From Clostridiales bacterium (GTDB lineage Bacteria; Bacillota; Clostridia; Christensenellales; Aristaeellaceae): a stretch of DNA of 37,755 bases. Location: assembly GCA_012523405.1 (NCBI GenBank), contig JAAYIN010000075.1, forward strand, positions 1 through 37,755. The letters run 5' to 3'. Within the stretch, counting starts at the first letter, position 1; every line of letters begins with the position of its first letter. Below the pieces are notes generated by a model. That model did not search any database. It was given only the letters and a program-made list of their open reading frames with translations, and was not told the DNA's origin. Both the position numbers and the translations under genes were made by a program. Of the stretch, positions 1-5,177 are shown piece after piece.

Positions 1-155
1 CCTGTTATGGGAAAATAAGAGAGTGAAGCTCTCTAGCGAGGGTCTGGAGTCTTGACCCATTTTGGGGCGAGTGAGGGAGCGAAGCGTTCACCTGATCCTG
101 TTATGGGAAAATAAGAGAGTGAAGCTCCCCTGCGAGGGTCTGGAGTCTTGACCCA
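1..155. repeat. 59-bp direct duplication
   Basis: Bases 1-59 and 97-155 are the same 59-bp sequence with three mismatches clustered in the middle. Between them (60-96) lies a short stretch containing GCGAAGC at 79-85. The unit contains GAAGCTC and ends in a G-rich then GACCC stretch, which resembles the repeats at 1987-2430 and 29600-29690. No gene is visible here; the copy at the left edge may continue outside the window. Confidence 0.85.
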
Positions 156-228
156 AGCATTGGAGTGTTGCTCCAATGGCTGGGATAGAGGGCGGTTGGA
201 TACAGCAGGTATAGGTTAAGTTTTTTGT

Positions 229-331: not shown

Positions 332-916
332 ATGAAAGACTTTGTCAGGGACGATCGCTTGCTTTCGCTATGCGGGCTTAACTGCGGTCTATGCTCCATG
401 CATTTGGGCGATTATTGCCCAGGCTGCGGGGGCGGGGCGGGCAACCAATCATGCGCCATCGCCAAATGCAGCATGCAGCGTGGCGTGACGTACTGCTTTG
501 AGTGCGAGTCGTTTCCATGCGCTACCTATGATGGCATTGATGAATTTGACTCCTTCATTACTCATCGTCATCAGCTAAAGGACCTGCGAAAGGCTCAAGA
601 AATTGGAATCGATGCGTACCAAAAAGGGCAGGCTGAGAAAGTTGCATGCCTGAGCTTTTTACTTATCAACTACAATGACGGCCGCAAAAAGAGCTTTTTC
701 TGCGTGGCTGTCAATTTGCTGGATTTGGGCGAAATAAAAGCGGTTATTGAGGTGCTGACTCAGGAAACAGCGCAGCGCGAGCTAACCCTCAAGGAGAAGG
801 CGGCGCTTGCCCAGCGGCTCTTTGAAGAGGTTGCCAGTCAGCATGGCATCTCCCTGAAACTGAGGAAGAAGCCGCGCAAGAGCAATGAATCAAAAGAAAG
901 CAAGACAGAGGAGTGA
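332..916 (+). CDS. DUF3795 family cysteine-rich protein
   Basis: A protein of 194 residues whose first 63 residues hold ten cysteines (C14, C18, C21, C29, C32, C41, C46, C55, C58, C63), beginning with the CGLNCGLC signature of DUF3795. The clusters look suited to binding zinc or an Fe-S centre, but the function of the family is not established. The C-terminus is Lys/Glu/Ser-rich and probably disordered. AGGAGGGG at 317-324 fixes the ATG. The stop codon adjoins the Shine-Dalgarno site of the next gene, a flavodoxin-like oxidoreductase, so the two are probably one operon and may act together in redox chemistry (inference). No signal peptide is seen, so it is probably cytoplasmic. Confidence 0.85.
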   Translation: MKDFVRDDRLLSLCGLNCGLCSMHLGDYCPGCGGGAGNQSCAIAKCSMQRGVTYCFECESFPCATYDGIDEFDSFITHRHQLKDLRKAQEIGIDAYQKGQAEKVACLSFLLINYNDGRKKSFFCVAVNLLDLGEIKAVIEVLTQETAQRELTLKEKAALAQRLFEEVASQHGISLKLRKKPRKSNESKESKTEE

Positions 917-922
917 CCATTT

Positions 923-1510
923 TTGAAAAACATATTAGTCGTTCTGGGCGGCGGCAGACCCAATGGCAATACGGCGCAGTTGGCGGATGCTTTCATCCGC
1001 GGTGCGCAGGAAGCGGGGCACACTGTGGAAAAAGTATCCCTCCTCAAAACCGAGGTCAAGGGCTGTATCGGATGCAATGCTTGCCGCTTTGACAAGCCCT
1101 GCATCCAAAAGGACGGATTCAACGAGCTCATCCCCAAAATCAAGGCAGCGGACCTCATCGTCTTTGCTTCGCCCCTCTATTTTTGGACGATATCTGCTAA
1201 GCTCAAGGCGTTCATTGAGCGCTTTTACTGCATCGCGCAGGAAGACCTAAGTCCTCCCTATGGCAGGTACGAGAAGTACCCTGTCAAGGATTCGGCGCTC
1301 CTCATGACCTCGGCTGATGAGTTCTTCTGGACATTTCATCAAGCGGAATCCTATTATCAGTTTGCCCTTGTGAACTATATCGGGTTCAATGATAAGGGCA
1401 TGATTTTAGCGGGCGGCTGCGGGGATACCAACGGCAAAGCGCAGATTGATAAGACGGAGCATTTGAATCAGGCGTACGCGTTTGGCAAAAATATCTACGC
1501 GGATGGCTGA
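923..1510 (+). CDS. Flavodoxin-fold NAD(P)H-dependent oxidoreductase (iron-sulfur flavoprotein-like)
   Basis: A protein of 195 residues of the NADPH-dependent FMN reductase family. An N-terminal beta strand leads into the FMN phosphate loop GGGRPNGNT (residues 9-17). The middle carries a Cys motif (C48, C51, C54, C60) like that of iron-sulfur flavoproteins, followed by the conserved SPLYFWTISAKLKAFIER region (about residues 88-105) of the flavin site. The substrate cannot be inferred. The start is TTG at 923, set by AGAGGAG at 907-913, which overlaps the end of the DUF3795 gene. This implies translational coupling. The C48-C60 motif differs in spacing from a classical ferredoxin motif, so cluster binding is plausible but not shown. 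Confidence 0.85.
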   Translation: MKNILVVLGGGRPNGNTAQLADAFIRGAQEAGHTVEKVSLLKTEVKGCIGCNACRFDKPCIQKDGFNELIPKIKAADLIVFASPLYFWTISAKLKAFIERFYCIAQEDLSPPYGRYEKYPVKDSALLMTSADEFFWTFHQAESYYQFALVNYIGFNDKGMILAGGCGDTNGKAQIDKTEHLNQAYAFGKNIYADG

Positions 1511-1661
1511 GATTTCCCCCAGCCTATTGCAGCCTCCTAGCATCCCAGAAAGTGTAGAAGCAGGAATGACGGCATATATGCATTTGTGAATATTGGAATA
1601 ATGCGGACATATGTTGAATAATCTCCTGCGAGAAGAAAAACTACATAAAGGGGTGCTGACT

Positions 1662-1922
1662 ATGATGGACGGAGCATATACCGACTTTCATGCTTTGACC
1701 GAGGAAGATGTACAATTTTTTGCAGATGTAATGAACGAACAGGTAAGCGTTATCGCTGAGCCGCTGGCAGTCGCTACGCAAGTAGTTGCGGGAACGAACT
1801 ATCGCTATTTCTGCAACGCAACGGTAGAGACACCAAAGGCGCGCAGCTATCCTGCCATGGTAACCATTTTCAAGTCATTGGCAGGTACATCGGAGCTCAT
1901 GGGCGTTACCGAAATCAAGTGA
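1662..1922 (+). CDS. Small stefin/cystatin-like protein
   Basis: An 86-residue protein with the cystatin signature QVVAG at 40-44, extended to QVVAGTNY (40-47) as in animal stefins. Other stefin-like elements are a Gly at position 4 after MMD, an amphipathic helix (about 13-28), a strand before QVVAG, and a VTIFKSL strand (67-73) comparable to the stefin VFQSL strand. No signal peptide is present, as in stefins. Cystatins inhibit papain-like cysteine proteases; inhibition by this protein is inferred only from the motif. The start is the ATG at 1662 because AAAGGGG (1647-1653) lies 8 bases upstream; an in-frame ATG at 1611 has no such site. It is followed by its own terminator. Similar small hypothetical proteins occur in gut Firmicutes, as far as I recall. 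Confidence 0.75.
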   Translation: MMDGAYTDFHALTEEDVQFFADVMNEQVSVIAEPLAVATQVVAGTNYRYFCNATVETPKARSYPAMVTIFKSLAGTSELMGVTEIK

Positions 1923-1944
1923 GCTAAGGAGAAAAAAGAAATAA

Positions 1945-1971
1945 GGCATAGGAAAAATCCTGTGCCTTTTT
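1945..1971 (+). terminator. Terminator after the cystatin-like gene
   Basis: A 9-bp stem (1945-1953 with 1958-1966, one G-T pair), an AAAA loop, and TTTTT at 1967-1971, 22 bases after the stop codon. Confidence 0.8.
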
Positions 1972-1986
1972 CTGTTGCGGGGAATT

Positions 1987-2430
1987 AAAGGGTCAAGGGC
2001 ATATGGGGTGAGCGAAGCTCCCCTTGTGGGGTGTAGGGGGCAAAGCCCCGCATTCGTCCTCCCGCCGCTCGCCCACTCCCCCCATCCTCCCCACAATAAA
2101 GGGTCAAGGGCATATGGGGTGAGCGAAGCTCCCCTTGTGGGGTGTAGGGGCAAAGCCCCGCATCGTTCCCCCGCCGCTCGCCCACTCCCCCCATCCTCCC
2201 ACAATAAAGGGTCAAGGGCATATGGGGTGAGCGAAGCTCCCCTTGTAGGGTGTAGGGGCAAAGCTCCGCATCCGTCCTCCCGCCGCTCGCCCACTCCCCC
2301 CATCCTCCCCACAATAAAGGGTCAAGGGCATATGGGGTGAGCGAAGCTCCCCTTGTGGGGTGTAGGGGCAAAGCTCCGCATCGTTCCCCCGTTCCCCCTC
2401 GTCCCCTCGTCCTCCCGTCCTCCCTCCGTA
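1987..2430. repeat. Four-copy tandem repeat, ~110-bp unit
   Basis: Units begin with AAAGGGTCAAGGGCATATGG at 1987, 2098, 2206 and 2316, giving periods of 111, 108 and 110 bp. Each contains GGGGTGAGCGAAGCTCCCC, an imperfect hairpin with the GCGAAGC core (2012, 2123, 2231, 2341), then a G-rich stretch, an AAAGC(C/T)CCGC stretch and a C-rich pyrimidine tail. The last unit diverges in its tail. The array fills the space between the convergent genes at 1662-1922 (+) and 2486-3430 (-). Open frames exist across it on both strands only because the unit is short of stop codons. Confidence 0.95.
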
Positions 2431-2485: not shown

Positions 2486-3430
2486 TTATACCGCAGGCAC
2501 AGCTTCAGCTTGCGGGGAAGAGTCTTTTACTTTAGGCATGGCGACATGCTCAGGCTTTGGGACGTGGTATTCGCAGCCCTTGTTGTAGAAAACCTCTTCG
2601 GGGGGTGTTTCGAGGAGTTCTGGGTGACGTAGGCAGTTTTTCGCAACGGCGAAGAACTTGGCATACATTGCGCCGCCGCAGACGCGCTCATCAGCAACGA
2701 TACCGATGGGGAGGGTGCATTTGCGAATGACGTTGCCGCCCGCATCGACGGTGTAGGAGCGCTTGGGATTACCGATGGAGAAAAATAGGCTGGTGTTGCC
2801 GAAGTTGTAGATATGATGATAGACGCGAGTCATACCGATGGATGCCATGTTGGTGACATACATGCCGGTGTGGAAGGGCAGAAAATCAACGAGCGCTTTG
2901 GGCAAAAGACCGTAGCGATCAAGTAGCTTGAGCAAGCCGACGACAACGGTGGGCACGAGCGGCACTTTGAGAATGCCTGCTGCGAGCTTGATGACAAAGC
3001 TTGGGTCTTCGGGGTCGCGGTTGCGGCTGATCATATCCTTGACGCGCGAGCTGACATCAAAAATGGTATCGCTGGGGTCAAACTTGATTTTAACGGCGTT
3101 TTCTTCCAGGCTGCCGTCCTTGGTGTCCAGCAGTAGGGTAAAGGCCGCGGTCAGCTCGGTGCGGTTGTAGAACTGCTTGTTGAGGACGAAGCGGTTGACC
3201 TCGGGAACTTGGGATATGCCGCGGATGTAGGAGGCGATCAAAATCTCCATAAAGGTGATTTTCACACCTTCGCGGCTTTTTTGCGCGATGTAGCGCATGA
3301 GCGGTTCGTACTCAACGTCGTGATCCAAAATGACCTGCGCGTCGCAGCGCATGGGCATGAGGTAGGGGGTAATTTGCACGATAGGGTCGATATCCCTTAC
3401 GCGCTTGCCCTCTGGGCGATGTCCAAACAT
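2486..3430 (-). CDS. Stand-alone 2-oxoacid dehydrogenase E2-like acyltransferase domain, active site altered
   Basis: A protein of 314 residues resembling the catalytic (chloramphenicol acetyltransferase-like) domain of 2-oxoacid dehydrogenase E2 subunits. Supporting stretches are GISQVPEVNRFV (71-82), the TNMASIGM segment (193-200), the YTVDAGGNVIRKCTLPIGIV strands and the C-terminal DERVCGGA (247-254). In true E2 enzymes this last motif is DHRxxDGA, with catalytic His and Asp; here they are Glu and Gly. No lipoyl domain, E1 or E3 gene is nearby. It is thus probably not a working E2; it may use other chemistry or be structural (inference). AAAGGATGG before the ATG at 3430 supports the start. 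It is transcribed alone. Confidence 0.75.
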   Translation of the reverse strand: MFGHRPEGKRVRDIDPIVQITPYLMPMRCDAQVILDHDVEYEPLMRYIAQKSREGVKITFMEILIASYIRGISQVPEVNRFVLNKQFYNRTELTAAFTLLLDTKDGSLEENAVKIKFDPSDTIFDVSSRVKDMISRNRDPEDPSFVIKLAAGILKVPLVPTVVVGLLKLLDRYGLLPKALVDFLPFHTGMYVTNMASIGMTRVYHHIYNFGNTSLFFSIGNPKRSYTVDAGGNVIRKCTLPIGIVADERVCGGAMYAKFFAVAKNCLRHPELLETPPEEVFYNKGCEYHVPKPEHVAMPKVKDSSPQAEAVPAV

Positions 3431-3614: not shown

Positions 3615-5177
3615 TTATGCAATAAACGATAAAAAATATTCCACTGAATCGCGCAAAGCCACAAAACAAGCCTGAATAATATCGGGGCTAACGCCCATGG
3701 TTGTCCACACGTTGTAGCCGTCGGTGCTCTCGATGAGGACGCGGACGGTACTGGCTGTGCCGCCGCTGTCAATCACGCGCACTTTGAAGTCGCGTAGGTG
3801 CATGTTTTCAACACTTGGGTAAAAGACGCGCAGCGCTTTTCTGATGGCAAGGTCAAGCGCGTTGACAGGGCCGTCGCCCTCGGCAGCGTTGATCTCCTCT
3901 TGCCCGTCAACAGAAATCTTGATATAGGCTTGTGCGTTGCGGTCGTCGTGTCTGGTGGAGGAGAGGACGTGATAATCCTTGACTTCAAAGAAGTGCTTGC
4001 GCTTGCCAAGGGTGTCAAGTGCCATGAGGTCAAAGCTTCCGTCGGCGGTTTCGTAGGCATAGCCGCGAAGCTCGCGCCGCTTGAGGCGCTCAGTGACGCG
4101 CTTGATGCGGGGATCATCGCGCTGAATCTCGGGCATGAGCCGCTTGAGGCGAGCGTAAACGCCTGCGCGACCCACCTGCTCGCTGAGGAGGAAGCGGGTG
4201 CGGTTGCCCACGAGCTCGGGCTTGATATGTTCAAAGCTGGCGGAATTTTTCATCATGCCGTCAATGTGCATGCCGCCCTTGTGCGCAAAGGCGCTGTAGC
4301 CAACGTAGGGCGAGCGCGGGTTGGGCTGTAGATTCATCACTTCGAGCACCTCGCGTGCGGTTTCGGTGAGCAAGGTGAGGTTTTCATCGGGAATGAGGGA
4401 ATAGCCCATTTTGAGCTGTAAAGTTGGGAGGAGGGTGTTGAGGTTGGTGTTGCCGCAGCGCTCGCCCACGCCGCCGATGGTGGTCTGCGCCATGGTCGCG
4501 CCCGCCTCGATGCAGGCGATGCTTCCCGCTACGGCAAGGCCCATGTCGTCGTGGCAGTGAATGCCCACCTTGGTGCCCGAAAACGCAGCAAGTACCTCGC
4601 AGGTCGCGCTCCGTAGGGTTTCGGGGAGCATGCCGCCCTTGGTATCGCATAGGACGAGCACATCCGCGCCGCCGCGCAGGGCAGCGCGCAGCGCCTCGAG
4701 GGCATATTCGCGGTCGTGGATGATGCCGTCAAAGAAATGCTCGGCGTCAAAGAGTACGCGCCTGCCCTCGGAAGCGAGGTATGCGACGCTCTTTTCGATC
4801 ATGCGTAGGTTCTCCTGAGGGGTGACGCGCAGGACGTCGGTCACTTGGAGGATGTCGGCTTTGCCGAAGATGGAGATGACGGGCTGCTCGGTTTGAAGAA
4901 GCGCGTTAAGCCCTGCATCCTTTTGCGCCTTGACGCCGCCGCGGCAGGTGCTGCCAAAGGGGACAAGGATGGCTTGGCTGAGAAAGGGCGATTTTTTCGC
5001 CTCCTCAAAAAATGCCCGATCCTTGGGGTTGCTGGCGGGGTTGCCCGCTTCAATGAGCGGAATGCCAAGCCGATCAAGCGCAAGAGCGATCTTGCGCTTA
5101 TCGTTGACGGAGTGGTCGACTCCTTCGCCCTGTGCCCCGTCCCGAAGGGTGGTATCGAGCAGTTCAATCTTCATCAT
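3615..5177 (-). CDS. cimA: (R)-Citramalate synthase
   Basis: A 520-residue enzyme of the alpha-isopropylmalate/homocitrate/citramalate synthase family. It condenses pyruvate and acetyl-CoA to citramalate, the first step of the threonine-independent route to isoleucine. Residues 6-20 hold LLDTTLRDGAQGEGV with the metal Asp and substrate Arg. GIHCHDDMG supplies the HxH metal ligands, followed by GGVGERCGNTNL. The AFAHKGGMHIDG segment continues the family core. The C-terminal part (about 395-520) matches the LeuA-type dimer regulatory domain, implying feedback control by isoleucine. The TLRDGAQGEG form and overall length fit citramalate synthase better than 2-isopropylmalate synthase. GGAGG lies 6 bases before the ATG at 5177; the ATG at 5174 is an alternative. 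It is the last gene of a three-gene operon, 15 bases after the serine hydrolase. Confidence 0.9.
   Translation of the reverse strand: MMKIELLDTTLRDGAQGEGVDHSVNDKRKIALALDRLGIPLIEAGNPASNPKDRAFFEEAKKSPFLSQAILVPFGSTCRGGVKAQKDAGLNALLQTEQPVISIFGKADILQVTDVLRVTPQENLRMIEKSVAYLASEGRRVLFDAEHFFDGIIHDREYALEALRAALRGGADVLVLCDTKGGMLPETLRSATCEVLAAFSGTKVGIHCHDDMGLAVAGSIACIEAGATMAQTTIGGVGERCGNTNLNTLLPTLQLKMGYSLIPDENLTLLTETAREVLEVMNLQPNPRSPYVGYSAFAHKGGMHIDGMMKNSASFEHIKPELVGNRTRFLLSEQVGRAGVYARLKRLMPEIQRDDPRIKRVTERLKRRELRGYAYETADGSFDLMALDTLGKRKHFFEVKDYHVLSSTRHDDRNAQAYIKISVDGQEEINAAEGDGPVNALDLAIRKALRVFYPSVENMHLRDFKVRVIDSGGTASTVRVLIESTDGYNVWTTMGVSPDIIQACFVALRDSVEYFLSFIA

What the first reader, a model, noticed from the sequence alone, without database searches (positions are those of the whole stretch)
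1662..1922. Stefin-like cystatin in a bacterium
The 86-residue protein has QVVAGTNY, the exact first-hairpin sequence of animal stefins, plus a Gly at position 4 after MMD, a preceding helix and a strand VTIFKSL where stefin B has VFQSL. A cytosolic cysteine-protease inhibitor motif is unexpected in a free-standing bacterial gene with its own ribosome site and terminator. It might inhibit host or bacterial papain-like proteases, or be convergent. The second-hairpin residues (usually LP) appear as LA, so binding may differ.
Basis: partly seen in the sequence, partly recalled or inferred. Interest (0 to 1): 0.7.

Follow-up and report, generated by a model that had tools for sequence, protein, structure and literature searches.

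The report
Stefin-like protease inhibitor in Clostridia
This small bacterial gene encodes a protein that looks like the animal cysteine-protease inhibitors called stefins; bacterial relatives of stefins were reported before, but this one belongs to a wider, mostly exported bacterial family that two standard protein-family libraries do not recognise.

Summary
Window 1662-1922 (+) encodes an 86-residue protein with Gly4, QVVAGTNY, and its own ribosome site and terminator. AlphaFold2 gives the cystatin layout (one helix, four strands; mean pLDDT 88.6); the first 32 Foldseek PDB hits come from cystatin entries, though none at E<=0.001. A profile of 26 bacterial relatives finds 16 PDB sequences at E<=0.001, all cystatins or stefins. 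No Pfam or NCBIfam model recognises it above cut-off. So it is homologous, not convergent: a signal-less (type 1-like) bacterial cystatin. Its activity is untested.

Stefins in bacteria, Clostridia included, were reported in 2009 (PMC2784779). New here are two branches. In the window's own family the profile matches 66 of 200 genomes, and 55 of the 56 proteins held from 50 of these look exported; the window protein is the exception. It belongs to a signal-less branch found also on Bacteroidota and Bradyrhizobium plasmids and viral contigs. Its genome has no detectable C1 peptidase, so the likely target is foreign. In the family as a whole cystatins co-occur with C1 peptidases, and one lies directly upstream of a secreted papain-like protease gene.

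The parts
1662..1922 (+). 86-aa signal-less cystatin (stefin-like) gene; the end includes the stop codon
1593..1622 (+). sigma-70-like promoter match TTGGAA-18-AATAAT
   Evidence: 2 found in the region against 1.1 expected from shuffles, so weak
1647..1653 (+). ribosome-binding-site-like AAAGGGG, 8 bases before ATG
   Evidence: read directly
1671..1673 (+). Gly4, the N-terminal glycine; G in 56 of 64 domains
1701..1733 (+). predicted helix, residues 14-24
1779..1802 (+). QVVAGTNY, residues 40-47, first hairpin loop between strands 30-41 and 45-55
1878..1886 (+). L73-A74-G75, second hairpin (Leu-x-Gly in the bacterial family instead of Leu-Pro)
1943..1968 (+). intrinsic-terminator-like hairpin with T-rich tail

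Best explanation
The gene makes a small cytosolic protein of the cystatin superfamily, type 1-like (no signal peptide; a single Cys, so no disulfide). By homology it works as a reversible wedge: the N-terminal Gly4 segment and the QVVAG hairpin enter the active-site cleft of a papain-like (C1) cysteine protease, and the Leu-x-Gly second hairpin adds contacts. Shown here: sequence homology, predicted fold, conservation of Gly4 and QxVxG. Inferred: that it inhibits, and that the target is a C1 protease not encoded by its own genome (from another microbe, a host or food), met after release or lysis, or after the protease enters the cell. The last step is the weakest.
For: Predicted fold H14-24, E30-41, E45-55, E61-71, E77-84 with the strand break at QVVAG. 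The first 32 of 50 listed Foldseek PDB hits come from entries of cystatins or their complexes, e.g. CsStefin-1 TMq 0.76 and stefin B of 1stf TMq 0.68. The 26-row profile finds 16 PDB sequences at E<=0.001, all cystatins or stefins (mialostatin and sialostatin L2 counted as such by the entry titles and names). Over 64 non-redundant domains G4 is kept in 56, Q40 in 56, V42 in 55, G44 in 61, N46 in 57, and relatives that lost QxVxG exist, so the motif is not needed for the domain. One relative (L078) carries the start of a chagasin-like (I42) domain after its cystatin domain (Pfam E=0.001, below cut-off); I42 proteins inhibit papain-like proteases. In the family cystatin and C1 peptidase matches co-occur: 42 of 66 cystatin-positive against 33 of 134 negative genomes, Fisher p=1.7e-7; by genus 16 of 18 against 11 of 32, p=2.8e-4. 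In one genome a cystatin gene ends 37 bases before the start of a secreted papain-like protease gene (L167). The window's genome has no PF00112 or PF03051 match, while each search rang in control genomes (3 and 2 of 14).
Against: No activity was measured. No Foldseek hit reached E<=0.001; TMq in the first 32 is 0.39-0.76. Pfam PF00031 did not match; only PF16845 (SQAPI) came near at E=0.013, under its cut-off. The second hairpin lacks the Pro of stefins. I see no route out of the cell and found no C1 peptidase inside it, so where inhibitor and target meet is unexplained. The cystatin beside the papain-like protease in L167 has itself lost QxVxG. Most PF00112 hits are short matches to the His/Asn block in frames of about 450 aa; those read on the right strand (L052-L055) resemble cytosolic aminopeptidase C (my reading), which an exported cystatin would not meet. 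The co-occurrence could reflect genome size, sampling or ancestry, and the window's genus is one of the 2 of 18 cystatin genera without a C1 match.
Confidence: 0.62

Rival explanations
1. A cystatin-fold protein that has kept the fold and motif but not the inhibition, and binds another partner.
For: Loss of inhibition is common among vertebrate cystatins (abstract of PMC2784779). The stefin Leu-Pro is missing; no own C1 protease was found; some relatives have lost QxVxG.
Against: The window protein keeps both Gly4 and QVVAG, the stretches that degenerate relatives have lost in part.
Confidence: 0.2
2. An immunity-type protein: a mobile, cytosolic cystatin that neutralises papain-like toxins or proteases delivered into the cell by rivals or phages.
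For: The signal-less branch is scattered over Bacteroidota and Bradyrhizobium plasmids, viral contigs and Bacillota. The Bradyrhizobium plasmid copy lies between transposase genes, and one viral-contig copy (L050) near an integrase-like gene (my reading). The window gene was not found in 16 of 16 other genomes of its genus. No C1 peptidase was found in its own genome.
Against: No papain-like toxin was found or looked for near these genes; the cargo positions are few.
Confidence: 0.12
3. Chance or convergent likeness: an unrelated short protein with QVVAGTNY.
For: 29 of 39 stretches with the pattern in viral contigs were not confirmed as relatives.
Against: Whole-domain profile and predicted fold both point to cystatins.
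Confidence: 0.03

Closest known systems
Stefins (type 1 cystatins, MEROPS I25), e.g. stefin A and B, Fasciola 6i1m, Clonorchis CsStefin-1
   Same: Predicted fold, Gly near position 4, QVVAG, no signal peptide, no disulfide; single domain
Bacterial stefins of Kordis and Turk 2009 (PMC2784779)
   Same: Signal-less cystatins in bacteria, patchy, Clostridia included; horizontal transfer proposed; a stefin-chagasin fusion in Bacteroides fragilis
   Different: Their sequences could not be compared here. Their Table 4 lists no cystatins proper (the signal-bearing lineage) in Firmicutes, whereas export-like ones are common in the window's family
Chagasin (Inhibitor_I42)
   Same: Inhibits papain-like proteases; one relative seems joined to the start of such a domain
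   Different: Immunoglobulin-like fold; not this protein
SQAPI (PF16845), plant inhibitor derived from cystatins
   Same: Only Pfam model near the window protein (E=0.013)
   Different: Below cut-off; SQAPI acts on aspartic proteases

Membership tests
Cystatin superfamily (I25) | Helix on an antiparallel sheet of four or five strands | tested here: met
   AF2 mean pLDDT 88.6, one helix and four strands; first 32 Foldseek PDB hits from cystatin entries, though none at E<=0.001. A prediction, not a structure
Cystatin superfamily (I25) | Profile-level sequence homology to known cystatins | tested here: met
   26-row profile against PDB sequences: 16 of 16 hits at E<=0.001 are cystatins or stefins
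Cystatin superfamily (I25) | Match to Pfam PF00031 above its cut-off | tested here: not met
   No match for the window protein; 2 of 26 relatives match at E<=0.1, best 0.085. PF00031 found nothing in 101 order genomes nor in the 14 controls, so that genome search proves no absence
Stefins (type 1) | N-terminal Gly and QxVxG | tested here: met
   Gly4 and QVVAG; conserved in the family
Stefins (type 1) | Leu-Pro in the second hairpin | tested here: not met
   Leu-Ala-Gly; Leu-x-Gly is the bacterial family pattern
Stefins (type 1) | No signal peptide, no disulfide | tested here: met
   No hydrophobic N-terminus by a crude script rule; a single Cys
Cystatin superfamily (I25) | Tight inhibition of C1 proteases | not testable with these tools
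   Needs an assay

The most novel reading that the evidence does not exclude
Bacteria hold a large cystatin family of their own with two arms: an exported arm, surface-anchored or tandem, that partners C1 proteases of the same lineage as a bacterial protease/inhibitor system; and a mobile cytosolic arm, to which the window gene belongs, that guards cells without C1 proteases against foreign papain-like proteases or injected toxins.
Probability: 0.2. Interest if true: 0.75.

Novelty: new variant of a known kind. Interest (0 to 1): 0.5.

Why it matters
The 2009 survey (PMC2784779) saw cystatins in bacteria as rare and horizontally acquired, for use against host proteases. Here one bacterial family has them in a third of the sampled genomes, export-like in 55 of 56 proteins examined, co-occurring with C1 peptidase genes, and unseen by Pfam and NCBIfam. 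That makes it testable whether bacteria run cystatin-based protease control of their own, and what signal-less mobile copies such as the window gene are for.

Tried and rejected
Rejected: chance or convergence. Rejected: signal loss from an exported copy of the same family; in a 64-domain tree the window protein falls in an 11-row group (support 100/93) of 10 signal-less domains and one lipoprotein-like one (L128), apart from the rows of its own family (88 columns, bootstrap not settled, 32 of 61 inner branches unresolved). Rejected: binning error; the same contig carries a gene (2489-3430) 67-79% identical in 15 of 16 other genomes of the genus.

Inconclusive: insertion in place. None of those 15 loci showed the cystatin or the two ORFs upstream of it, but none showed the next gene on the other side (3615-5177) either, so gene order is not conserved on either side. 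Inconclusive: whether the giant protein in L041, whose last domain is a cystatin, also has a cysteine-peptidase domain (NFCWGMC...HHSILAL...VYDVNHP, my reading). Pfam at E up to 10 found nothing, PDB sequences gave one unrelated hit at E=0.48, and the AF2 model had pLDDT 38 and was not used. Neighbours: in 20 stretches around relatives my gene picking showed the cystatin gene in 12; no neighbour was shared widely, only by the two close relatives L148 and L149 or by chance-level families. Paper listings showed no report of exported clostridial cystatins; the library lacks most subscription journals.

Full report
Observation. The 86-residue ORF at 1662-1922 (+) is real and reads as described. 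It has a ribosome-site-like AAAGGGG 8 bases before the ATG (read), a weak promoter match and a good terminator hairpin, so it looks like a one-gene unit. Upstream lie two other ORFs (332-916, 923-1510); downstream lies an array of 110-bp repeats.

Homology. Pfam's cystatin model did not match; only SQAPI, a cystatin-derived plant family, came near (E=0.013, cut-off not reached). NCBIfam gave nothing meaningful. phmmer against PDB sequences put a cystatin (6i1m) first at E=0.0027. Relatives were gathered from genomes, one named Clostridia contig (L010), viral contigs and plasmids. A profile of 26 of them (A3) matched 31 PDB sequences at E<=1. Sixteen were at E<=0.001, all cystatins or stefins. 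Over all 31, only a MIF-like protein at E=0.41 is clearly something else; smolstatin, iristatin and CPI I count as cystatins partly by recall. The solved extracellular inhibitor 9vzu (E=1.1e-5) begins MDGAYSKKEVTEED, close to the window's MMDGAYTDFHALTEED. Four of the 26 rows come from viral contigs found through a motif pattern, and L010 was also found through peptide patterns, which leans the profile a little to those motifs; the rows from genome searches were not found that way. Scanned one by one, 2 of the 26 hit PF00031 at E<=0.1 (best 0.085), and no NCBIfam model fits.

Fold. AlphaFold2 with 10 aligned sequences gave mean pLDDT 88.6 and pTM 0.77, helix 14-24 and strands 30-41, 45-55, 61-71, 77-84, with the first turn at VAG. 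Foldseek: the first 32 of 50 listed PDB chains come from entries of cystatins or their complexes; best TMq 0.76 (CsStefin-1), stefin B of the papain complex 0.68; no E-value passed 0.001. The VIA-align library was not available.

Functional residues. The 77 distinct domains then held (those with X or under 70 residues dropped) gave 64 at an 85% identity cut, degenerate ones included. Gly4 is kept in 56 of 64, Trp or Tyr at 6 in 62, Gln40 in 56, Val42 in 55, Gly44 in 61, Asn46 in 57, Leu73 in 42 and Gly75 in 57. [quoted passage not shown] The bacterial family keeps the first two elements and has its own Leu-x-Gly second hairpin. Some relatives (for example L062 to L066 and L071) have lost QxVxG while keeping the domain.

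Two branches. Of 84 distinct relatives' proteins held, a crude script rule called 46 signal/TM-like, 22 lipoprotein-like and 16 without signal. The lipoprotein figure is an upper one: L060, L061 and L075, for example, have ordinary signal-like starts far upstream. Two of the 16 are pieces of larger or tandem proteins (L041, L133). In the window's own family 55 of 56 proteins held, from 49 genomes, are export-like by the same rule; the one exception is the window protein (these are 50 of the 66 positive genomes, the rest were not held). Signal-less copies sit on Bacteroidota plasmids (Persicobacter, Aureibacter), a Bradyrhizobium plasmid between transposase genes, viral contigs, L010, a distant genome of the same phylum (L080) and the window. 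In a 64-domain tree (QxV-type motif intact, 75% identity cut) this group plus one lipoprotein-like relative is separated with support 100/93, and the other rows of the window's family lie elsewhere. So the window gene is most simply a separate, probably transferred, lineage. It was not found in 16 of 16 other genomes of its genus.

Distribution (each count includes the window's genome). The A1 profile matched 66 of 200 genomes of the window's family, 18 of 50 genera. A3 matched 15 of 248 in the order and 4 of 398 in the phylum, one of them marginal, with E 8.9e-4 and a stop inside; the narrower A2 profile matched 3 of 398. PF00031 matched 0 of 101 order genomes and none of the 14 controls, so it simply does not see this family. 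Exported members come singly, in tandem up to four domains (L139, L138), or joined to other domains, for example DUF218, where the cystatin domain has lost its motif (L062). One seems joined to the start of a chagasin-like domain (E=0.001, under cut-off, sequence then masked).

Targets. PF00112 and PF03051 found nothing in the window's genome (96% complete), so a C1 protease of its own is unlikely, though a divergent one could be missed. In the family the picture differs. Of 66 cystatin-positive genomes 42 had a PF00112 match, against 33 of 134 negative ones (p=1.7e-7); by genus 16 of 18 against 11 of 32 (p=2.8e-4). I took the 200 genomes to be the same draw, as their handles suggest; 5 of the 75 PF00112 genomes are at E<=0.001 but under the family's cut-off. 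A subset was defined after seeing the table: hits starting before profile position 150, meant to leave out aminopeptidase C. It gave 11 genomes, 10 of them cystatin-positive (p=7.6e-5), in 7 genera that all have cystatins (p=3.2e-4). No correction for ancestry, genome size or sampling was possible. In one genome (L167) an export-like cystatin gene ends 37 bases before the likely start of a co-directional gene for a protein of about 970 residues with a signal-like start and a papain-like active-site stretch; that cystatin has lost QxVxG. In 20 other stretches, 12 of which showed the cystatin gene in my gene picking, no widely shared neighbour was seen.

What is known. Kordis and Turk 2009 (PMC2784779; sections 18 and 19 read; other passages) found stefins in 17 bacterial genera including Clostridium, a stefin-chagasin fusion in Bacteroides fragilis, no cystatins proper in Firmicutes, and proposed horizontal gain for use against host proteases. 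A 2012 review (PMC3594739, passages) says that more experimental data are needed. I saw no assay of a bacterial cystatin in the listings and passages seen.

Conclusion. The window gene is a bacterial, signal-less cystatin, a divergent relative of stefins with a changed second hairpin. The finding is sound but not a first. The wider pattern around it (an exported family co-occurring with C1 peptidases, and a mobile signal-less branch) is the more interesting part. The inhibitory function and the target of the window protein remain inferred.

Noticed in passing
window 1986-2382: Tandem array of 3.6 copies of a 110-bp GC-rich unit just after the cystatin terminator; parts of the unit recur at 17 further places on other contigs of the same genome (21 matches in all), so it is a dispersed repeat.
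   Followed up: partly
window 1-180: The contig (and window) begins inside a stretch that is repeated within its first 160 bases, which may be why the assembly ended there.
   Followed up: no
L167 3625-6940: Export-like cystatin gene directly upstream of a secreted papain-like protease gene on the same strand, gap 37 bases; the cystatin has lost QxVxG.
   Followed up: partly
L041 3-5252: Giant protein with cadherin-like and Cu_amine_oxidN1 domains ending in a cystatin domain 40% identical to the window protein, with a stretch that might be a cysteine peptidase.
   Followed up: partly
L139 4589-6223 and L138: Lipoprotein-like proteins with four cystatin domains each.
   Followed up: no
window 332-1510: An ORF with a Cys-rich start (332-916) and a flavodoxin-like FMN-reductase-type ORF (923-1510; names from recall); for the latter the genus mates gave only distant matches, best 40% identity.
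   Followed up: partly
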